30,471 bases of DNA, taken from contig JAQERH010000013.1 in assembly GCA_027698105.1 (NCBI GenBank), positions 39,204 through 69,674 on the forward strand, read 5' to 3'. The notes under the pieces are model-generated. The model was not told the origin of the DNA. It saw only the letters and a program-made list of their open reading frames with translations, and did not search any database. The position numbers and the translations under genes are program-made. This DNA comes from Lachnospiraceae bacterium AM93-12TA. GTDB lineage: Bacteria > Bacillota > Clostridia > Lachnospirales > Lachnospiraceae. Numbering within the stretch: position 1 is the first letter of the stretch; each line of letters opens with the position of its first letter. This document shows positions 9,393 to 27,228 of the stretch, one piece after another.

Positions 9393-10511
9393 ATGGAAGA
9401 AAAGATACTGACCTTTGAAGAGAAGCTGGAGAAACTTCTGGAGCTGGCAAGGAAAAAGAAAAACGTGCTGGAACAGAAAGAAATCATCGATTTCTTCCAT
9501 GGCGAAATCCTGAGTCCTGAGCAGCTGGATCAAATTGACGAATACCTGGAAAATAATAAGGTGGACGTACTGGCTCCTGACGAGGATCTGGAGATGGAAC
9601 CAGAGCTTTTTATGGAAGAGGAGGATTTGGAGGAAGAGGATATTGACGTGGATCACCTGGAACTGTCCATGCCGGAAGGCGTCAATATTGAGGATCCGGT
9701 CCGCATGTATTTAAAGGAGATTGGAAAGGTTCCTCTTTTAACTCCGGAGGAGGAGATCGACCTGGCGAAGCGGATGGAGATGGGGGACGAGTCAGCTAAA
9801 AAGCGGCTGGCAGAGGCCAATCTGCGTCTGGTAGTCAGCATTGCCAAGCGGTATGTAGGCCGTGGAATGCAGTTTCTGGATCTGATCCAGGAGGGAAATC
9901 TTGGTCTGATCAAGGCAGTGGAGAAATATGACTATTCCAAGGGCTTTAAATTCAGCACCTATGCAACCTGGTGGATTCGTCAGGCGATTACCCGATCTAT
10001 CGCTGACCAGGCCCGCACGATCCGGATTCCGGTTCACATGGTAGAGACGATTAACCGTCTGATCCGCACATCGAGACAGCTTTTGCAGGAGCTGGGGCGG
10101 GAGCCGCTTCCGGAGGAGCTGGCGAAGAAGCTGGATATGCCGGTAGACCGGGTGAGGGAAATTATGAAAATTTCTCAGGATCCTGTTTCTCTGGAGACGC
10201 CGATTGGGGAGGAGGAGGACAGCCATCTGGGCGATTTTATTCAGGATGAGCATGTTCAGATTCCAGTGGACGCGGCCACTTACACCCTGCTTCACGAACA
10301 GCTGATGGAGGTCCTTGATACTCTGACAGACCGGGAACAGAAGGTGCTCCGGCTGCGCTTTGGATTAGATGACGGAAGACCCAGAACCCTGGAAGAGGTG
10401 GGCAGGGAATTTAATGTGACCAGAGAACGGATCCGCCAGATAGAAGCGAAGGCTTTAAGAAAGCTTCGCCATCCCAGCAGGAGCAGAAAGCTGAAGGACT
10501 ATCTGGACTGA
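9393..10511 (+). CDS. rpoD: Primary sigma factor RpoD/SigA
   Basis: This is the housekeeping sigma-70 subunit of RNA polymerase, about 372 residues. An acidic region 1.1 (residues 1-100) is followed by region 1.2 ([28 protein letters not shown]). Region 2 is [37 protein letters not shown] and continues into [27 protein letters not shown]. Region 4.2 is [33 protein letters not shown] 9393 is preferred because AAGGATGGAG precedes it; an upstream in-frame ATG at 9375 has no ribosome site. The genes downstream (trmK, nif3) follow the order found near sigA in B. subtilis. Confidence 0.96.
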
Positions 10512-21246: not shown

Positions 21247-21280
21247 ATAAATAAACCAACCTGTGTCCCCACAGGGAAAA

Positions 21281-21310
21281 GCACTTGAAAAGCCGCTTTT
21301 GCATAAGATA
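21281..21310 (+). promoter_or_regulatory. Candidate sigma-K/sigma-E promoter of sigK
   Basis: CATAAGATA (21302-21310) matches the mother-cell sigma -10 consensus CATAnnnTA. An AC (21283-21284) lies 17 bases upstream as in sigma-K promoters. The predicted start (about 21317) lies in the loop of the terminator hairpin, so this transcript would lack the hairpin's 5' arm. The motif is short and untested. Confidence 0.4.
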
Positions 21311-21340
21311 CATTAACGTATCTGAAAGGCGGCTTTTTTT
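21287..21340 (+). terminator. Terminator hairpin overlapping the sigK start
   Basis: AAAAGCCGC (21288-21296) pairs with GCGGCTTTT (21329-21337), with an inner GATAC/GTATC stem and a T run to 21340. It terminates the DUF2812 transcript, while its 3' arm contains the probable sigK ribosome site AAAGGCGG (21325-21332). Confidence 0.8.
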
Positions 21341-21620
21341 GAAAACATTTCCCAAACCATTGACAGCAGAAGAGGAACGGAGTTATCTGAAGCAGTACAG
21401 AGAAGGAAGCGAGGAAGCAAAAGCCGTTCTGATAGAGAGGAATTTAAGGCTGGTAGCCCATGTTGTTAAAAAATATCAGTACACAGACTATGAGACGGAG
21501 GATCTGCTGTCTGTGGGAACCATAGGGCTTATTAAGGCGGTTAATACCTTTAAGATGGATCGTGGTTCCAGACTGGCTACCTATGCAGCCAAATGTGTAG
21601 AGAATGCTATCCTATCATAA
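21339..21620 (+). CDS. sigK: RNA polymerase sigma-K factor, N-terminal part (split gene)
   Basis: This encodes the first 89 residues of the late mother-cell sporulation sigma factor, then four foreign codons and a stop. It contains region 2: FPKPLTAEEERSYLKQYREG, LIERNLRLVAHVVKKYQ, DLLSVGTIGLIKAVNTF and RGSRLATYAAKCVEN. The frame breaks at the AATG core (21603-21606), inside the conserved ENEILM sequence of SigK. TTG 21339, with AAAGGCGG 6 bases upstream, is the favoured start. A TTG at 21285 would encode the hairpin and is doubtful. With the 21339 start there is no hydrophobic pro-sequence as in B. subtilis pro-SigK, a situation known from C. difficile. It is joined to 26878-27228 after excision. 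Confidence 0.93.
   Translation: MKTFPKPLTAEEERSYLKQYREGSEEAKAVLIERNLRLVAHVVKKYQYTDYETEDLLSVGTIGLIKAVNTFKMDRGSRLATYAAKCVENAILS
21603..21616 (+). other. Left attachment site core and arm of the skin-like element
   Basis: The core AATG (21603-21606) is followed by GCTATCCTATC (21606-21616 including the shared G). The arm is the inverted complement of GAGAGGATAGC at the right end (26863-26873) with one mismatch, so the two would form a dyad around the core in the excised circle. Confidence 0.75.
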
Positions 21621-21651
21621 AAGAGATCTGGAAAGAGCCCGGAAGCCGCTC

Positions 21652-21858
21652 TCAGCTGTCTGCCGTCTGGAGCAGTGTGGCTTCAATGACTGCATCCAGA
21701 AGAGCTTCCTTCTGGCGGGAGGATCCACGGAAGGCTCTGATTGTCTGGAGAACAGCATCTGCGTGGATTTCAGCCGTTTTTCGGGCCAGTTCTGATTTTC
21801 CTTCCTCTGTGCCGGGCGCATGGATAATGAGTGTCAAAGGACTCTTTTTTTTTGCCAT
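21652..21858 (-). CDS. Small skin-encoded protein, candidate excision factor
   Basis: This 68-residue protein on the minus strand has its ATG at 21858 and an AGAGG ribosome site 4 bases upstream. It starts with a basic MAKKKSPLTLIIH and continues as an amphipathic helical protein (EEGKSELARKTAEIHADAVLQTIRAF and QKEALLDAVIEAT). There are no cysteines or membrane segments. From memory it resembles small hypothetical proteins near serine recombinases in clostridial elements. It lies 32 bases inside the left end and opposes the cargo. C. difficile skin carries a small protein needed for excision, so a directionality factor is plausible, but this is inference only. A GATACAAT box (minus strand, 21882-21875) resembles a sigma-E -10. 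Confidence 0.6.
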   Translation of the reverse strand: MAKKKSPLTLIIHAPGTEEGKSELARKTAEIHADAVLQTIRAFRGSSRQKEALLDAVIEATLLQTADS

Positions 21859-21941
21859 AATACCTCTGCTGATTGTATCGTTTGCTTTAATCTATGAGAG
21901 AATATCTGTTTTCTATGCCTCATTGGAAATACTTGCTGTAA

Positions 21942-21956
21942 TGTGATCATATCACA
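21942..21956. promoter_or_regulatory. Crp/Fnr-type operator upstream of the SDR operon
   Basis: The sequence TGTGATCATATCACA is a perfect TGTGAT/ATCACA dyad around CAT. Its centre (21949) is about 41 bases before the predicted start (21990), the position of class II activator sites. It matches the operator at 24347-24361. Confidence 0.85.
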
Positions 21957-21977
21957 GAAAAAAAGCAGAAGCTCCTG

Positions 21978-21983
21978 TATAAT
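21978..21983 (+). promoter_or_regulatory. -10 element of the SDR-ferredoxin operon
   Basis: A perfect TATAAT lies 21 bases after the operator. No -35 hexamer is present at the right spacing (CAGAAA at 21955), consistent with an activator-dependent promoter. Confidence 0.75.
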
Positions 21984-22012
21984 AAAAACATAAAAAGACA
22001 GGAGGTGCTCAT

Positions 22013-22759
22013 ATGAGGCTGAAGGATAAAGTTGCTGTTATTACTGGCGGAAGCCGCGGGATTGGCTTTGCTACTGCAGAGAAGTTTCTGAAAGAAGGGG
22101 CTGTTGTGATTATTACAGCCAGTTCACAGGCTAACGCAGACCAGGCAGTATCAAAATTAAGGGAGAAGTACCCGGAAGCGGTAGCAGCGGGAATCAGCCC
22201 GGATTTATCAAGTCTTGAATCCGTCCGTGCCGCGTTTCGAGAGGTATCAAAAACCTATGGATGTGTAGATATTCTGGTAAATAATGCAGGAGTTTCCGAG
22301 AGCACTCCTTTTATGGAGTATACGGAAGAGCTTTACGACAAAGTGATGGAGCTGAATGTAAAAGGCGTATTTAATGCCACCAGAGCAGCTGCAGAGTGTA
22401 TGGCAACCAGAGGAAGCGGTGTTATTCTTTCCACCTCCTCCATGGTCAGCATTTCCGGACAGCCCAGCGGATTTGCCTATCCGGCATCTAAATTTGCAGT
22501 CAATGGTCTGACGATCTCTCTGGCGCGGGAGCTGGGACCAAAAGGGATCCGCGTCAATGCAGTAGCTCCCGGAATTACAGAGACAGATATGATGAAAGCA
22601 GTGCCCAAGGAGGTTCTGGATCCGATGATTGAAAAAATTCCCCTCCGCCGTCTGGGAAGTCCGGAGGACATTGCCAATGCTTTCGCATTCCTGGCCTCTG
22701 AGGAGGCGTCCTACATTACAGGCGTGGTGCTGAGCGTAGACGGAATGGCAAGATCATAG
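22013..22759 (+). CDS. Short-chain dehydrogenase/reductase (BaiA/FabG-like)
   Basis: This is a classical NAD(P)-dependent SDR of 248 residues. The cofactor motif is TGGSRGIG (11-18), followed by NNAG (90-93). The catalytic residues S143, Y156 and K160 (YPASK) are intact, and the C-terminal VDG motif is present. The spacing of PDL (63-65), KYPEAV, YPASK, VAPG and TDM resembles BaiA-type 3-alpha-hydroxysteroid dehydrogenases and FabG relatives more than sugar dehydrogenases, by recall rather than a search. AGGAGGTG precedes the ATG. Transcription begins at an activator-type promoter and probably continues into the ferredoxin gene. A bile acid or steroid substrate is a possibility only. Confidence 0.85.
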   Translation: MRLKDKVAVITGGSRGIGFATAEKFLKEGAVVIITASSQANADQAVSKLREKYPEAVAAGISPDLSSLESVRAAFREVSKTYGCVDILVNNAGVSESTPFMEYTEELYDKVMELNVKGVFNATRAAAECMATRGSGVILSTSSMVSISGQPSGFAYPASKFAVNGLTISLARELGPKGIRVNAVAPGITETDMMKAVPKEVLDPMIEKIPLRRLGSPEDIANAFAFLASEEASYITGVVLSVDGMARS

Positions 22760-22782
22760 AAAGGGATGAATAAAAGAAACAG

Positions 22783-22806
22783 GGCCGCGGCAGGAATACC
22801 GCGGCC
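22783..22806 (+). other. GC-rich hairpin between the SDR and ferredoxin genes
   Basis: GGCCGCGG (22783-22790) pairs with CCGCGGCC (22799-22806), 8 bp with an 8-base loop. No T run follows, so it is more likely an RNA-processing or stability element than a terminator. Confidence 0.7.
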
Positions 22807-22820
22807 TGGGAGGAATCAAA

Positions 22821-23024
22821 ATGGAGCGGAAACGAAAAAAAGCCCTGGTAGATCAGACTTTATGCGTAGCCTGTGGCTGCTGTATGAAGGTTTGTCCTCT
22901 GCAGGCAGTGAAAGTGGTGAAAGGGATGATGGCAGAGGTAGATTGGAATAAATGCGTGGGATGCGGCAGATGTGTGAAGGAATGTCCGGCCAGCATTATT
23001 TCCCTTCAGGAGGTGGAAGCGTGA
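22821..23024 (+). CDS. 2[4Fe-4S] ferredoxin
   Basis: This small electron carrier of 67 residues has two Cx2Cx2Cx3CP motifs. One has C15, C18, C21 and C25 (LCVACGCCMKVCP) and the other C45, C48, C51 and C55 (KCVGCGRCVKECP). It acts in the cytoplasm. GGGAGGAA precedes the ATG by about 7 bases, just behind the hairpin at 22783-22806. Its stop overlaps the GTG of the following membrane protein, so it probably delivers electrons to or from that protein. The extra basic N-terminus (MERKRKK) is unusual for a free ferredoxin. Confidence 0.92.
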   Translation: MERKRKKALVDQTLCVACGCCMKVCPLQAVKVVKGMMAEVDWNKCVGCGRCVKECPASIISLQEVEA

Positions 23025-23590
23025 AAAAACAGTGGTATGATTATTTGTGGGTGTTTTCTCTCACTTACCTGATTTTGGGATTCTTCAATATTTTATTTGC
23101 GTGGCTGGGGTTGATCTGTTTTTTTCTTCCGTTGCTGACTGCTCTGACGAAAGGGACGAAGGGCTACTGTAACCGGTACTGCGGAAGAGGCCAGCTGTTT
23201 GGCATTCTGGGAGGCCGTCTGGGGCTTTCCAGAAAAAAGGATATGCCCGGATGGATGAAGGGAAAGGCGTTCCGCTATGGCTTTCTCGCTTTTTTTCTGC
23301 TGATGTTTGCACAGATGCTCTGGAATACATACCTGGTATTCGCAGGAGTGCAAGGATTGAGGCAGGCAGTAACCCTTTTATGGACCTGGAAACTGCCGTG
23401 GCACTGGGCGTACCACGGAACCTTGTTCCATGAAGGGACGGCACAGTTTGCCTTTGGCTTTTACAGCGTGATGCTGACTTCGACTGTGCTGGGGATTGCT
23501 TTGATGGTATTGTTCAAACCCAGAACCTGGTGCGTAGTCTGTCCTATGGGAACCATGACCCAGATGATATGCAGGATAAAGAACCAATAA
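23021..23590 (+). CDS. NapH/NosR-like membrane Fe-S protein
   Basis: This polytopic membrane protein of 189 residues has about four helices (roughly 9-29, 30-43, 86-110 and 145-166). It contains cysteine motifs C50xxxC54 (GYCNRYCGRGQLF) and C171xxC174P (RTWCVVCPMGTM). These match the CxxxCP-type motifs of NapH, NosR and RdxA membrane proteins that pass electrons between quinones or ferredoxins and periplasmic or membrane redox enzymes. GTG 23021 is the start, with AGGAGGT (23009-23015), and it overlaps the ferredoxin stop. An upstream in-frame ATG at 22952 would run through the ferredoxin gene. With the SDR and ferredoxin it forms one operon. Confidence 0.82.
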   Translation: MKKQWYDYLWVFSLTYLILGFFNILFAWLGLICFFLPLLTALTKGTKGYCNRYCGRGQLFGILGGRLGLSRKKDMPGWMKGKAFRYGFLAFFLLMFAQMLWNTYLVFAGVQGLRQAVTLLWTWKLPWHWAYHGTLFHEGTAQFAFGFYSVMLTSTVLGIALMVLFKPRTWCVVCPMGTMTQMICRIKNQ

Positions 23591-23618
23591 ACAACTAATA
23601 AAAACAGAATGTATATAG

Positions 23619-23660
23619 AAAGCTTCGTTTATGCTCTCTGCAGCTGACGGAGCTTTTTTT
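23619..23660 (+). terminator. Terminator of the SDR-ferredoxin operon, within the end of the regulator gene
   Basis: AAAGCTTCG (23619-23627) pairs with CGGAGCTTT (23648-23656), followed by T residues to 23660. The 3' arm lies in the convergent Crp/Fnr coding region. Confidence 0.7.
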
Positions 23661-24288
23661 CATCCAGAATGGTGACCATACCGCGGGATAAGCGGACCAT
23701 GCCCTCACTTTGGAAATACCGAAGCATTCTTGTAATGACTTCACGATGCGATCCCAGATGGTTGGCGATTGTCTCATGGGTCAGCTTTAAGGCCTGGGTT
23801 CCTTCAATGGCAGACTCTTCCAGAAGAAAAGCAGCCAGCCGTTTATCCAGGCTTTTCCACATAATCTGTTCAATCAGCCACATTACATCAGAAAATCGGG
23901 AGGCCATCAGCTCATTTGTGTAGTTAGCTGCAGGCGCAGACTCATTCATAATGCTTTTGTATACATCGGCTGGAATGATCCACAGCTCAGTATCCTTTTC
24001 TGCTTCAATAATTATTTCAAATTGAATGGAACGCATGATGCAGGACGCAGAAAAGAGGCACATATCCATATCAAACAGCCGGTACAGGGTGATTTCACGT
24101 CCTTCGTCAGAGAGAATATAGGCCCGGAGCTGCCCTGACTGAAGCAGAAGCAGGCCGGTGCAGTCTGCGCTGCCGTTGTGGACAATTGTGCCTTTCGCAA
24201 CATGACTTGTCATGAGGCTTCCAAGAATTCTGTCCTGCTGGTTTTTAGTTAATTGATTCCAAATCGGAAAGCTGTTTTGAAAGTCCAT
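23629..24288 (-). CDS. Crp/Fnr-family transcription regulator
   Basis: This regulator of 219 residues has an N-terminal cNMP-binding-like beta roll (about 15-120), a long dimer helix (about 125-150) and a C-terminal HTH (about 168-205). The recognition helix is HREVITRMLRYF. R182, E183 and R187 have the spacing of CRP's DNA-contacting R-E-x-x-x-R, which reads GTGA half-sites. This predicts sites like those found at 21942 and 24347. C43, C77 and C83 (MCLFSASC) are not arranged like the FNR 4Fe-4S site and may be redox-sensitive. AAGGAGGG sets ATG 24288. It is divergent from thioredoxin and convergent with the ferredoxin operon. It probably activates both operons of the element; the signal is unknown. 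Confidence 0.9.
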   Translation of the reverse strand: MDFQNSFPIWNQLTKNQQDRILGSLMTSHVAKGTIVHNGSADCTGLLLLQSGQLRAYILSDEGREITLYRLFDMDMCLFSASCIMRSIQFEIIIEAEKDTELWIIPADVYKSIMNESAPAANYTNELMASRFSDVMWLIEQIMWKSLDKRLAAFLLEESAIEGTQALKLTHETIANHLGSHREVITRMLRYFQSEGMVRLSRGMVTILDEKKLRQLQRA

Positions 24289-24312
24289 TGTTTTCCCTCC
24301 TTGTATAGGACA

Positions 24313-24341
24313 AGTATAAGCCGGGCCGGCAGTTCTGTCAA
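24313..24341 (-). promoter_or_regulatory. Consensus sigma-A promoter of the Crp/Fnr regulator
   Basis: On the minus strand, TTGACA (24341-24336) and TATACT (24318-24313) are separated by exactly 17 bases. The predicted start is near 24306. The operator centre at 24354 is about 48 bases upstream, so the regulator may also act on its own gene. Confidence 0.85.
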
Positions 24342-24346
24342 TTTTA

Positions 24347-24361
24347 AGTGATCATATCACA
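24347..24361. promoter_or_regulatory. Crp/Fnr-type operator upstream of thioredoxin
   Basis: The sequence AGTGATCATATCACA differs by one base from the operator at 21942. Its centre (24354) is about 41 bases before the predicted trxA start (24395), with the same 21-base distance to the -10 as at the SDR promoter. Confidence 0.85.
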
Positions 24362-24382
24362 GAAGAAATCGGAAAAGTTTTG

Positions 24383-24388
24383 TATACT
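24383..24388 (+). promoter_or_regulatory. -10 element of the thioredoxin transcript
   Basis: TATACT lies 21 bases after the operator. No good -35 is seen at 16-18 bases upstream, so activation by the bound regulator is likely. Confidence 0.7.
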
Positions 24389-24418
24389 AAGCTCAGATAA
24401 AAGAAAGGAGCTGACAAT

Positions 24419-24748
24419 ATGAAAGCGATGGAGATAAATAAAGAATTATTTGAACAGATGATGGAAGATGACAGACCTGTACTGATTGATTTCTGGGCAC
24501 CCTGGTGCGGATACTGCAGAAGGATCGGGCCGGCTTATGAAAAGATTGCAGAGGAATATGGCAGCAGCGGCCGCCTGACGGTGGGAAAGGTAAATATCGA
24601 CGAAGAAAAGTGGCTGGCTGAGAAGGAGCAGATAGAGGTGATTCCTACGCTGATACTTTATAAAAATGGGAAGGCAGTGGATTCAATTGTAGCTCCAGAG
24701 TCTAAAGCCATGATCGAGGAATTTATTGAGAACGCATTGGAAAAATAA
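24419..24748 (+). CDS. trxA: Thioredoxin
   Basis: This thioredoxin of 109 residues is a cytoplasmic disulfide reductant. The active site is FWAPWCGYC (C30 and C33) with a Tyr in place of the usual Pro between the cysteines (WCGYC rather than WCGPC), which changes the redox potential in known variants. The cis-proline is P76 (IEVIPTLIL). AAAGGAG precedes the ATG by 8 bases. It is transcribed from the operator-linked promoter together with the deleted trxB, 22 bases downstream. The regulator gene is divergent. Confidence 0.92.
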   Translation: MKAMEINKELFEQMMEDDRPVLIDFWAPWCGYCRRIGPAYEKIAEEYGSSGRLTVGKVNIDEEKWLAEKEQIEVIPTLILYKNGKAVDSIVAPESKAMIEEFIENALEK

Positions 24749-24770
24749 GAATCAGTGAGGGGGATGCTTT

Positions 24771-25064
24771 ATGAAAGTAAATCATATTTACGATATGATT
24801 GTCATTGGAGGAGGACCGGCAGGTTATACAGCGGCTCTTTACGGGGCAGGAGCAGGACTTGATACACTGGTAATTGAAAAATTGTCAGCGGGAGGTCAGA
24901 TGGCGCTGACGCAGCAGATTGACAATTATCCTGGGTTTGAAGAAGGAATTGACGGATTTGAGCTGGCAGAACGGATGCAGAGGCAGGCGGAACGGTTTGG
25001 GGCAGTGACAGATGGGGCTATGGCAGTTCATATGGCGGAGGAGTATCTGGCAGAACATGCATAA
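24771..25064 (+). pseudogene. Thioredoxin reductase with a large internal deletion
   Basis: The 97-residue frame begins like TrxB, with the FAD-binding GGGPAGYTAALY (13-24), LIxEK-like VIEKLSAGGQM and the substrate-side NYPGFEEGIDGFEL. It then jumps near residue 77 directly to VTDGAMAVHMAEEYLAEHA, which matches the C-terminal end of the family. About 200 residues, including the CxxC active site and NADPH domain, are missing, yet the frame is kept. It cannot work as a reductase, but the FAD-binding segment could still be made. A GTGAGGGGG ribosome site precedes the ATG. It is best read as a decayed trxB, with an assembly or deletion event as an alternative. Confidence 0.82.
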
Positions 25065-25091
25065 CATCTGCCCAGCAGGGAAAGGCTGCGT

Positions 25092-25119
25092 TCATTTTAG
25101 GCATGCCGGGTGATATAAT
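25092..25119 (+). promoter_or_regulatory. Recombinase promoter (sigma-A extended -10 and/or sigma-E-like)
   Basis: TGATATAAT (25111-25119) is an extended -10. The same region reads TCATTTT (25092-25098), then 13 bases, then GATATAAT (25112-25119), six of eight positions of the sigma-E -10 CATACAAT. Mother-cell expression would fit a sigK excision enzyme, but both readings remain open. Confidence 0.45.
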
Positions 25120-25157
25120 AGAAGAAAGCATATCGCCAATGGGACAGGAGAGCAGAT

Positions 25158-26849
25158 ATGAGGAAACATGAAAACTGCATTGCCATTTATTCCCGCAAAT
25201 CAAAATTTACAGGAAAGGGAGAGAGTGTTGGGAATCAGGCCGAACTCTGCAGAGAGTACATCCGCATCCACTATGGGGCAGAGGCTTTGAAACATCTGCT
25301 CGTGTACGAGGATGAGGGATTTTCTGGAGGAGATTTAAACCGTCCTGGTTTTAAGAAGATGATGGAGGCTGCCAGAAAGCGGGAATTTCAGGCTTTGATT
25401 GTTTACCGTCTGGATCGAATCAGCCGGAATATCAGCGATTTTTCCGGGCTTATTGAAGAATTATCCCATCTGGATATTGATTTTATTTCTATTAAGGAGC
25501 AGTTTGATACTGGAACTCCTATGGGGCGGGCCATGATGTACATAGCGTCCGTGTTTTCCCAGCTGGAGCGGGAAACCATTGCAGAGCGGATTCGCGACAA
25601 CATGCACGAGCTGGCGAAGACGGGACGCTGGCTGGGGGGTACGACTCCTACCGGCTATGCTTCTGAAGCAGAGGAGACAGTTTTTGCAGACGGAAGGGCA
25701 AAAAGAGTATGCAGACTGAAGCTGCTTCCAGATGAGGCAGATAAGGTAAGGCTGATTTACAGCCTGTATCTGGAGCTTGGCTCACTGGCCATGACAGAAA
25801 CCCGTCTGCTGAAACTGGGGATTCAGACGAAAAACGGCAGAGCCTTTACCCGTTTTTCCATCCGTGGAATTCTTCAGAATCCCGTTTATCTGACAGCGGA
25901 TCAGGATGCCTACAGGTATTTTGAGAGAAACGGTTCAGAAGTATGTTCCGGAACAGAGGCTTTTGATGGCGTTCACGGAATGATGGTTTACAATCGAACC
26001 AGACAGGAAAAGGGAAGAACCACAGAGTTTCTGTCTCCGGAACAGTGGATTGTGGCGGTGGGACGTCATCCTGGCCTTATATCAGGAAGGCAGTGGACGG
26101 CTGTTCAGGAATCCCTGGAACGGAATAAAACAAAAGCATACAGAAAGCCCTGCAGAAATGAAGCTCTGGCAACAGGGCTTCTCTTCTGCAGCTGCGGCAG
26201 CCGGATGTACCCGAAGGCAGGGAGGAGAAGAAAAGAGGATGGCAGTAGGCCTTACACCTATGTGTGCAGGACAAAGGAGAGAAGCAGGGGAAATCTCTGT
26301 GCAGGAAGCAATGTGAGGGGGAAAGAGCTGGATACAGCCCTTGTAGAGCAAATACAGGGACTTGAGGAGGATAAAGAACATTTTCTCAGCTGCCTGAGGC
26401 AGGGACGCAGTTTCTGTCTGTCTGGTATGGACAGCGGACAAATACAGCTTCTGGCGGCGGAAAAGGAGAGAGAGGGGATTGAAAAGAAACTGCAAAGTCT
26501 GGCAGATTCCCTGTCTCTGTTTCAAGATAAAGGAGTACGGGAGAAAGCGGTCAGGCGCATGGAGGAGCTGGGCGGCAAAGGCAGGGAACTGGATCTTGAA
26601 ATTCAGCATATGAAAGCAGACGCCTGCCAGCGGGAATTGTCTGATTCAGAGGTTCAGAATCAGGGGAAAATGCTCTGCAGCTTTAAAAACAGTATAGGCA
26701 CTATGACAACAGAGCAGAAACGGGCAGCTTTGGACGTTCTGTTCCGCCGGATTATATGGGATGGAAACGTTGCCCACGCAGTGCTTGCAGGTGCCGCAGA
26801 TGAGGAACTGAACGGTCTTTCTGGAATAGAGGGATGCTGCTTTGACTGA
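25158..26849 (+). CDS. Large serine recombinase of the skin-like element
   Basis: This site-specific recombinase of 563 residues is predicted to excise the element from sigK. The N-terminal resolvase domain (about 8-155) has the catalytic S15 in YSRKS and the YRLDRISRN motif (83-91), plus QLERETIAERIR. A recombinase domain follows (about 165-330). A zinc ribbon has C344, C346, C370 and C381, and a coiled coil covers about 430-500. AGGAGAG precedes ATG 25158. It ends 25 bases before the right attachment core, as SpoIVCA-type genes lie near their own sites. It is the only recombinase in the element. Size and domain order fit the large serine family. Confidence 0.94.
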   Translation: MRKHENCIAIYSRKSKFTGKGESVGNQAELCREYIRIHYGAEALKHLLVYEDEGFSGGDLNRPGFKKMMEAARKREFQALIVYRLDRISRNISDFSGLIEELSHLDIDFISIKEQFDTGTPMGRAMMYIASVFSQLERETIAERIRDNMHELAKTGRWLGGTTPTGYASEAEETVFADGRAKRVCRLKLLPDEADKVRLIYSLYLELGSLAMTETRLLKLGIQTKNGRAFTRFSIRGILQNPVYLTADQDAYRYFERNGSEVCSGTEAFDGVHGMMVYNRTRQEKGRTTEFLSPEQWIVAVGRHPGLISGRQWTAVQESLERNKTKAYRKPCRNEALATGLLFCSCGSRMYPKAGRRRKEDGSRPYTYVCRTKERSRGNLCAGSNVRGKELDTALVEQIQGLEEDKEHFLSCLRQGRSFCLSGMDSGQIQLLAAEKEREGIEKKLQSLADSLSLFQDKGVREKAVRRMEELGGKGRELDLEIQHMKADACQRELSDSEVQNQGKMLCSFKNSIGTMTTEQKRAALDVLFRRIIWDGNVAHAVLAGAADEELNGLSGIEGCCFD

Positions 26850-26862
26850 ATGCAGCTTCTGG

Positions 26863-26878
26863 GAGAGGATAGCAAATG
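26863..26878 (+). other. Right attachment site core and arm of the skin-like element
   Basis: The core AATG (26875-26878) is preceded by GAGAGGATAGC (26863-26873), the inverted complement of the left arm with one mismatch. In the joined circle the arms are symmetric around AAAT, so the dyad centre falls inside the shared core. Confidence 0.75.
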
Positions 26879-27228
26879 AGATTCTAATGATGTTTCGCGC
26901 CGGCCGAAAGCGAGCCAGGGACGTTTCGCTCTATGATACGATTGGAACGGATAAGGATGGAGAGACCGTCAGCCTGATGGACGTTCTGGAAGCTGATGAG
27001 ATCCAGGCATTAGATACAATTATTATGGAGCAGGACGTAAAAGAGCTTTATCAGGCCTATGAATCCTGCCTGAAGGATACAGAGCAGCAGGTAATCCGCA
27101 TGCGGTATGGACTGTTTGGAACCAGGGCGCATACACAGAGAGAGGTGGCAGCCGTTCTGGGAATTTCCCGATCCTATGTATCCCGCATTGAAAAAAAGGC
27201 AGTAGAAAAGCTTAGGGAGGCATTTTAG
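26878..27228 (+). CDS. sigK: RNA polymerase sigma-K factor, C-terminal part (split gene)
   Basis: This encodes the last 116 residues of sigma-K. It begins with EILMMFRAGRKRARDVSLYDTIG, matching the region after the ENEILM break, and DKDGETVSLMDVL follows. Region 4.2 is TQREVAAVLGISRSYVSRIEKKAVEKL (the HTH is GISRSYVSRIEKKA). It has no start or ribosome site of its own; a TTG upstream at 26842 would read the recombinase tail and attachment arm and is not a real start. It is expressed only after the element is excised, joined to 21339-21605. The stop codon lies in a GC-rich hairpin. The regions are not diverged from SigK, so the gene is not a pseudogene. Confidence 0.94.
   Translation, partial: EILMMFRAGRKRARDVSLYDTIGTDKDGETVSLMDVLEADEIQALDTIIMEQDVKELYQAYESCLKDTEQQVIRMRYGLFGTRAHTQREVAAVLGISRSYVSRIEKKAVEKLREAF

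What the first reader, a model, noticed from the sequence alone, without database searches (positions are those of the whole stretch)
21339..27228. sigK is split by a compact 5.3-kb skin-like element
The N- and C-terminal parts of sigma-K occur 5.27 kb apart in the same frame and orientation, and removing 21603-26874 restores CVENEILMMF with no stop. A large serine recombinase ends 25 bases before the right junction. This is the layout of the sporulation skin switch known from B. subtilis and C. difficile, but several times shorter than either (from memory). Developmental excision would make sigma-K in the mother cell only.
Basis: partly seen in the sequence, partly recalled or inferred. Interest (0 to 1): 0.95.

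Follow-up and report, generated by a model that had tools for sequence, protein, structure and literature searches.

The report
Tiny self-excising insert splitting sigK
In a DNA fragment from a Lachnospiraceae-like bacterium, a 5.3-kb insert carrying its own recombinase and a likely excision helper splits the late spore-forming gene sigK at one exact codon and is predicted to cut itself out in the mother cell so that sigma-K can be made; 25 further bacterial DNA stretches carry inserts of 1.6 to 25 kb at the same codon.

Summary
sigK is split at the AAT codon of C-V-E-N-E-I-L by 5,272 bp (21603-26874), in frame, with an intact large serine recombinase (LSR) ending 25 bases before the right junction. 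The ten closest relatives found have an unbroken sigK. The rebuilt element ends form a dyad (11 of 12 inner positions) centred on a shared AA, as expected of an LSR site.

New here: 26 such elements, window included, sit at the identical sigK codon, 1,634 to 25,433 bp long, so 5.3 kb is mid-range. Besides the LSR, 24 of 26 share a small protein of no named family, in the window the unannotated minus-strand ORF 21652-21858 (68 aa). I propose it is the recombination directionality factor. Half of its genes have a sigma-E-like promoter motif. In three elements of about 1.64 kb, LSR plus this ORF are nearly everything. LSR and sigK identities conflict (92% against 53%), so the elements move between hosts.

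The window's cargo is cellular (SDR, ferredoxin, Crp/Fnr, thioredoxin, broken thioredoxin reductase); no phage structural gene was found.

Excision, its timing and the directionality role are inferred; no excised molecule was seen. New variant of the known skin switch.

The parts
21280..21311 (+). sigma-K/E-like promoter motif before sigK (AC, 17 nt, CATAAGATA)
   Evidence: AGCACTT and GCATAA kept in the window and all 8 relatives printed; promoter class judged from a recalled consensus, not tested
21339..21605 (+). sigK 5' half, TTG start, no pro-sequence; N-terminal 89 residues to the AAT codon
   Evidence: TIGR02846 E 4.7e-43; TTG start shared with all 8 relatives printed
21574..21632 (+). 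attL: sigK left side plus element left end; core AATG 21603-21606, central dinucleotide AA
21652..21858 (-). 68-aa ORF, proposed recombination directionality factor (RDF)
   Evidence: profile of its family hits 24 of 26 sigK elements; best control E 0.17 (76 sigK loci without the LSR) and 0.07 (47 stretches around other LSRs); found with the LSR in 9 of 12 and 13 genomes among 397
21889..21916 (-). sigma-E-like promoter motif of the proposed RDF gene (ATA-N17-CATAGATT)
   Evidence: same motif at 12 of 24 RDF genes, 0.26 expected; motif chosen after seeing the first 11
22013..22759 (+). cargo: short-chain dehydrogenase/reductase (FabG-like)
   Evidence: PF13561 1.7e-65
22821..23024 (+). cargo: 2x[4Fe-4S] ferredoxin
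   Evidence: PF00037 2.2e-14
23021..23590 (+). cargo: membrane protein with a weak Fer4_5 match
   Evidence: PF12801 1.5e-4 over the longer ORF 22952-23587; no family at 1e-5 from the GTG start
23629..24288 (-). cargo: Crp/Fnr-family regulator
   Evidence: PF13545 4.4e-17
24419..24748 (+). cargo: thioredoxin
   Evidence: PF00085 2.2e-28
24771..25064 (+). cargo: thioredoxin reductase, broken after about residue 81
   Evidence: TIGR01292 covers 73 of 300 positions; similarity to relatives' TrxB stops at residue 81
25091..25119 (+). sigma-A-like motif before the recombinase (TTCATT-17-TATAAT)
   Evidence: 9 of 12 matches, 11% of shuffles as good; not listed by the promoter scan; weak
25158..26849 (+). 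large serine recombinase (563 aa)
   Evidence: PF00239, PF07508, PF13408; relatives lie by a sigK half in 22 of the 27 class-draw genomes with a hit
26845..26904 (+). attR: element right end plus sigK right side; core AATG 26875-26878
26875..27228 (+). sigK 3' half (region 4), 117 residues
   Evidence: TIGR02846 E 4.1e-40

Best explanation
This is a compact, non-phage sigK-intervening (skin-type) element whose serine recombinase, likely helped by the 68-aa protein encoded at its left end, would excise it precisely at the shared AA core during sporulation and so would rebuild sigK in the mother cell. Shown: exact in-frame split, intact recombinase gene, dyad attP, unbroken sigK in relatives, and a small protein shared by 24 of 26 elements at the same codon. 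Inferred: the recombinase performs the excision; the small protein is the directionality factor; its sigma-E-like promoter limits excision to the mother cell; the recombinase alone is made more widely and would mediate entry at sigK; the spore keeps the element. The SDR, ferredoxin, Crp/Fnr and thioredoxin genes are passengers that resemble ordinary chromosomal genes of relatives.
For: Both SigK halves are complete to one codon and open. L001-L010 have the uninterrupted gene. attP inner arms: window 11 of 12 complementary, 0 of 20,000 shuffles; mean of 26 elements 9.73, shuffles 3.18, largest 4.5; attB 4.38. Outer arms match within elements (9.35 of 15) better than between elements (6.12; 0 of 2,000 re-pairings). 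Where the flanks differ, as AATG against AACG in G206 and G198, AA stays shared. The LSR clade favours sigK: 22 of 27 class-draw genomes with a hit have a sigK half within 1.5 kb of it (21) or on the same stretch (G701). A profile of the small protein from 11 elements finds 12 of 14 held-out elements (G029, found through that protein, left out); no control below E 0.07. LSR and small protein share 9 genomes of 12 and 13 in 397, p 2.5e-13. Motif ATA-N17-CATANNNT at 12 of 24 RDF genes (7 of the first 11, 5 of 13 held-out), 0.26 expected, most 2 in 400 resamplings. In C. difficile the skin RDF CD1234 has 72 aa and a sigma-E promoter and its LSR is expressed constitutively (PMC5025042, sections read); the B. 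subtilis skin RDF Skr has 64 aa (PMC6957869, passages).
Against: No excised junction or circle was seen. The best unbroken sigK among the 120 listed database proteins is 94% identical (82 of 89 and 110 of 117 residues), not the window's own allele; the database is clustered at 90%, so an identical allele could be hidden. The window's outer attP arms are weak (5 of 15), as in G176 and G029 (6 each). The proposed RDF has no accepted family match, its pI is 8.1 against 5.5 reported for CD1234, and its model (mean pLDDT 83, pTM 0.56) matches no solved or viral fold. 2 of 26 elements (G427, G578, LSR inverted) show no RDF; in two of the three smallest elements the held-out match is weak (E 0.002 and 0.012). 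The promoter motif is missing at 12 of 24 RDF genes, was defined after seeing the first 11, and related elements are not independent. The sigma-A-like motif is within shuffle noise.
Confidence: 0.8

Rival explanations
1. Dead insertion: the element has permanently broken sigK and the lineage no longer makes sigma-K.
For: Cargo shows decay (trxB broken); outer attP arms are weak; no joined allele of the window was found.
Against: LSR, RDF candidate, inner att arms and both sigK halves are open and conserved. In the 26 elements the junction codons read in frame; the 3' half runs open to a normal end in 22, reaches the end of the DNA held in 3 (G753, G578, G427) and is split a second time in 1 (G596). 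SpoIIID, a mother-cell sporulation regulator, is found in 13 of 14 element carriers tested, not in G038; 12 over the cut-off.
Confidence: 0.12
2. Excision happens but is not tied to sporulation: the element leaves at low rate in any cell, as a mobile element does, and sigK loss is a tolerated side effect.
For: LSR and sigK identities conflict (G198-G004 92% against 53%; G226-G206 93% against 54%), so elements move; 20-kb members carry MobA/MobL or RepA_N genes; a weak sigma-A-like motif precedes the LSR.
Against: The sigma-E-like motif sits before the RDF candidate, above expectation; one codon of a sporulation gene is used throughout.
Confidence: 0.1
3. The 68-aa protein is not a directionality factor but another conserved element gene (for example a regulator), and the LSR excises without it or with another helper.
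For: No functional annotation; two elements lack it; RDFs as a group share no significant sequence similarity (PMC5025042).
Against: It was the only gene besides the LSR shared across the first 11 elements, sits directly before the LSR in the 1.64-kb elements, and tracks the LSR among genomes.
Confidence: 0.25
4. Assembly artefact joining unrelated DNA into sigK.
For: The window's genome is not held.
Against: A 99% identical but different LSR is encoded on another contig (P0001); junctions fall exactly on a symmetric att core; GC inside (0.480) is close to the flanks (0.475); 25 parallel cases.
Confidence: 0.01
5. The two halves work as separate stable proteins (split sigma factor).
For: Each half has an open frame with a possible start.
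Against: The break lies inside the conserved stretch CVENEIL and the ten closest relatives keep it unbroken; both ends carry LSR site features.
Confidence: 0.02

Closest known systems
B. subtilis skin element (SpoIVCA, Skr; 48 kb)
   Same: Splits sigK; LSR encoded inside; 64-aa RDF; site sequence AATGA (PMC6957869 and PMC10745906, passages); the window's attR reads AATGA.
   Different: Prophage-like and nine times longer; B. subtilis SigK has a pro-sequence (PMC5025042), the window's does not; RDF homology untested (Skr sequence not available here).
C. difficile skin-Cd (CD1231 LSR, CD1234 RDF)
   Same: sigK without pro-sequence; LSR plus a 72-aa RDF with a sigma-E promoter; excision argued to be the main gate (PMC5025042, sections read).
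   Different: Inserted at a different site and in opposite orientation to skin-Bs (PMC5025042; PMC6957869); 19 genes; CD1234 acidic (pI 5.5), window protein 8.1; homology of the two RDFs untested.
B. cereus gin element in gerE
   Same: Non-phage intervening element with LSR plus directionality factor (GirC, GirX), excised in sporulation (PMC5595907, abstract and two sections read).
   Different: In gerE; 31 genes; three recombinases.
sigK insertions of the B. cereus group (22 and 39 kb)
   Same: Insertion in sigK; the 22-kb one has no phage proteins and is excised (PMC10745906, start of abstract and passages).
   Different: Larger; carry DNA-modifying and hypothetical genes; the 22-kb form sits at another position than skin.
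sigK prophages (C. tetani, C. perfringens, Alicyclobacillus MMB025)
   Same: sigK used as the integration site (PMC5553647, PMC13141910, passages).
   Different: Phage genomes.

Membership tests
skin-type sigK-intervening element | splits sigK into two in-frame halves | tested here: met
skin-type sigK-intervening element | encodes an intact large serine recombinase inside the element | tested here: met
skin-type sigK-intervening element | short shared core and LSR-type attP symmetry | tested here: met
   AATG shared; inner arms 11 of 12; outer arms weak, 5 of 15
skin-type sigK-intervening element | encodes a cognate RDF | tested here: inconclusive
   conserved candidate in 24 of 26 elements; function untested
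skin-type sigK-intervening element | mother-cell (sigma-E, SpoIIID) control of excision | tested here: inconclusive
   ATA-N17-CATANNNT motif before the candidate RDF gene
skin-type sigK-intervening element | excision restoring sigK during sporulation | not testable with these tools
   needs cells or reads
prophage or prophage remnant | phage structural or packaging genes | tested here: not met
   PHROGs at 1e-5 on 7 further element ORFs: 4 metabolic matches, 3 none; the LSR matches integrase families; not every small ORF was scanned
gin-type element | inserted in gerE, three recombinases | tested here: not met
   one LSR found, in sigK
integrative mobilizable element | relaxase or Mob gene | tested here: not met
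   none among the window's element ORFs scanned, although G226 has MobA/MobL and G004 RepA_N

The most novel reading that the evidence does not exclude
Clostridia harbour a mobile family of sigK-specialist elements whose whole core is two genes, a serine recombinase and an unnamed 57-75 aa directionality factor under sigma-E. It works as a DNA-level intein of sigK: as little as 1.64 kb (factor plus recombinase only), or opened up to carry exchangeable metabolic cargo (redox genes, alpha-galactosidase, sugar PTS, two-component system) that every spore inherits and every mother cell discards. It moves between genera and hands species that lack a SigK pro-sequence a new irreversible gate on late sporulation; in one genome a second element even splits sigK again.
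Probability: 0.6. Interest if true: 0.87.

Novelty: new variant of a known kind. Interest (0 to 1): 0.72.

Why it matters
Skin elements are textbook developmental DNA rearrangements, called an exception in clostridia (PMC5025042, 2016). Here 9 of 397 family-draw genomes and 22 of 391 class-draw genomes have this LSR clade at sigK, and bounded elements go down to 1.63 kb. This makes an old question testable: what is the minimum needed to turn an insertion into a developmental switch, and is the gate useful to the host or only safe for the element? The proposed RDF family would also give matched recombinase, factor and site sets for use as tools.

Tried and rejected
Own-genome searches failed because no genome is held, so copy number of sigK and of the cargo in this host is unknown. 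An attP pattern scan of IMG/VR gave 3 stretches without sigK or LSR; I take them for chance inverted repeats. The RDF scan of IMG/VR confirmed nothing, although the A1 profile had found a relative in L140 and L141. Fold searches of the RDF model gave no match at E <= 0.001. The apparent break inside H. hathewayi sigK (L076) is a run of N (9624-9999); what it hides cannot be told. Shared ORFs that overlap the LSR in other frames were set aside as shadows of the LSR. The 'NapH' query was translated out of frame; nothing rests on it. The sigma-A-like promoter of the LSR is within noise. Literature: ten searches of the held open-access library; in the listings, abstract starts and passages I saw there was no report of sigK elements in Lachnospiraceae or of elements this small. 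Subscription papers are not covered.
Full report
CHECK. The two sigK halves are real and complete. 21339-21605 and 26875-27228 match the SigK model over adjoining profile stretches, AATG is shared at 21603 and 26875, and the frame runs on across the core. The LSR ends 25 bases before the junction codon. In all ten closest loci found by the C-half (L001-L010; Lachnospiraceae, Hungatella and similar labels) the halves meet in the same AAT codon. Among the 120 listed database proteins the best unbroken SigK is 94% identical.

FAMILY. I searched the LSR in 397 genomes drawn from the family of a near relative: 12 have it at E <= 1e-150. In 8 the sigK C-half follows at once; in a ninth, G221, both halves flank it; G349 has a C-half 4.6 kb on; G122 and G173 show none in the stretches held. 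In 391 genomes of the class, 27 have it at E <= 1e-110 (29 hits) and 22 of these have a sigK half by it; G574, G540, G715, G493, G708 and the second hits of G324 and G428 do not. With L059 (Ruminococcus sp. MAG), G004 (Tyzzerella sp. An114), G029 (found through the RDF) and the window, 26 elements are bounded on both sides, all at the same codon, from 1,634 to 25,433 bp. Since nearly all were found through the LSR or the C-half, that they share the LSR is by construction. Left out of the 26: ten stretches with one sigK half in the DNA held (single-sided list), G439 and G472, whose LSR lies near a contig end, and the IMG/VR loci. In 22 of 26 the 3' half is open to a normal end; in 3 the DNA held ends first; in G596 it stops after 39 codons. 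There the rest of sigK lies about 5.4 kb further on, with a second, distant LSR between, so that gene is split twice.

SITE. Element right end plus left end gives a dyad centred on AA of AATG. Inner 12 positions: mean 9.73 complementary in 26 elements against 3.18 shuffled; window 11, none of 20,000 shuffles as good. The host site is not symmetric (4.38). Outer arms match within each element better than between elements (9.35 of 15 against 6.12, 0 of 2,000). The window's own outer arms are weak (5 of 15). Where right and left flanks differ (AACG against AATG) only AA is common, so I put the crossover there.

SMALL PROTEIN. Comparison of ORFs in the first 11 elements left two genes shared by all: the LSR and a 57-75 aa ORF (direct matches to the window's copy in 9 elements, the tenth, L059, through G206). 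In the window it is 21652-21858 on the minus strand, 49 bases from the core. The window's copy matches no family in Pfam, NCBIfam or PHROGs at the limits used; two relatives have only weak matches (best NCBIfam 0.009, under its cut-off; PHROGs 0.012 and 0.015; Pfam 0.15). A profile of these 11 finds it in 13 of the 15 other bounded elements (12 of 14 without G029), the weakest at E 0.012 and 0.002 in two of the 1.64-kb elements. Controls: 76 sigK loci without the LSR, 1.24 Mb, best 0.17; 47 stretches around other LSRs, two genomes counted twice, 0.67 Mb, best 0.07, or 0.05 with a profile of all 24. Over the 397 genomes the profile hits 13, the LSR 12, both 9 (p 2.5e-13). Of the four profile-only genomes, G029 has a sigK element whose LSR was below my limit; G284, G129 and G167 show no sigK half in the stretches held. 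692 database proteins match, one cluster on 558 contigs with the name Lachnospiraceae. The predicted structure is a two-helix hairpin (pLDDT 83, pTM 0.56) without a match.

REGULATION. ATA-N17-CATANNNT lies near the start of 12 of 24 RDF genes against 0.26 expected; I chose the motif after reading the first 11 upstream stretches, of which 7 have it; of 13 held-out ones 5 have it. In the window it is 21889-21916. It resembles sigma-E sites (consensus recalled). In C. difficile the RDF is the sigma-E and SpoIIID controlled partner while the LSR is constitutive (PMC5025042). The window's LSR has TTCATT-17-TATAAT upstream, not better than chance. sigK starts at a conserved TTG without a pro-sequence, so, as argued for C. 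difficile, excision would be the main gate.

CARGO AND ORIGIN. SDR, ferredoxin, membrane protein, Crp/Fnr, thioredoxin and a broken thioredoxin reductase; PHROGs gives metabolic labels only. Crp/Fnr, thioredoxin and thioredoxin reductase lie together in the same divergent order at other loci of two relatives (L227, L228), where TrxB similarity covers the window's ORF only to residue 81, so the passengers are probably captured host genes. Other elements carry alpha-galactosidase (G324), a two-component system (G038), GH1 plus PTS (G072), MobA/MobL (G226) or RepA_N (G004). LSR and sigK identity disagree (92 against 53%; 93 against 54%). In the LSR tree the window groups with P0001-P0004, then with G176. 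The nearest named phage LSR is 38.8% identical; an IMG/VR contig of 38.8 kb, L140, has an LSR (43%), an RDF relative and an inverted sigK half, so phage ancestry of the family stays open.

STATUS. Shown: split, junctions, site symmetry, family, mobility signal. Inferred: excision, its timing, RDF role. 13 of 14 element carriers tested have SpoIIID, G038 not (12 over the cut-off); of the two element-free relatives in that call G002 passes the cut-off and G001 has it in partial pieces.

VERDICT. A new variant of the skin switch: compact, cargo-bearing, with a proposed new RDF family and natural two-gene minimal versions.

Noticed in passing
L218 19024-19122 and L230 5502-5789 (G596): sigK is split twice: a 6.6-kb element at the shared codon and a second stretch of about 5.4 kb between residues 28-33 of the 3' half, holding a distant LSR (22%); the two pieces overlap by about 6 residues, like a core repeat.
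   Followed up: partly
database cluster P0001: A 99% identical LSR sits on an ENA contig of 5,275 bases, 3 more than the element length; it could be the excised circle or the piece between the two junctions. I had no way to fetch the contig.
   Followed up: no
L199, L201, L206: sigK elements of 1,648, 1,645 and 1,634 bp that hold little more than the RDF-like ORF and a 453-455 aa LSR frame.
   Followed up: partly
L198 and L202: Elements of 2.7 and 2.9 kb with the LSR inverted relative to sigK and no detectable RDF relative.
   Followed up: partly
L140: 38.8-kb IMG/VR contig with a related LSR (43%), an RDF relative and the sigK N-half in inverted orientation: a possible prophage ancestor.
   Followed up: partly
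window 24771-25064: Thioredoxin reductase cut off after about residue 81 beside the LSR, a sign of a capture or deletion break.
   Followed up: partly
window 21286-21338: Terminator-like hairpin (AAGCCGC...GGCGGC, then a T run) ends directly before the TTG start of sigK; read by eye.
   Followed up: no
L076 9624-9999: H. hathewayi sigK holds a run of N inside the 3' half; whether it hides an insertion cannot be told.
   Followed up: partly
P0213, P0204: RDF relatives carry the source names Lachnospiraceae (558 contigs) and Mediterraneibacter gnavus: culturable hosts for a test may exist.
   Followed up: no
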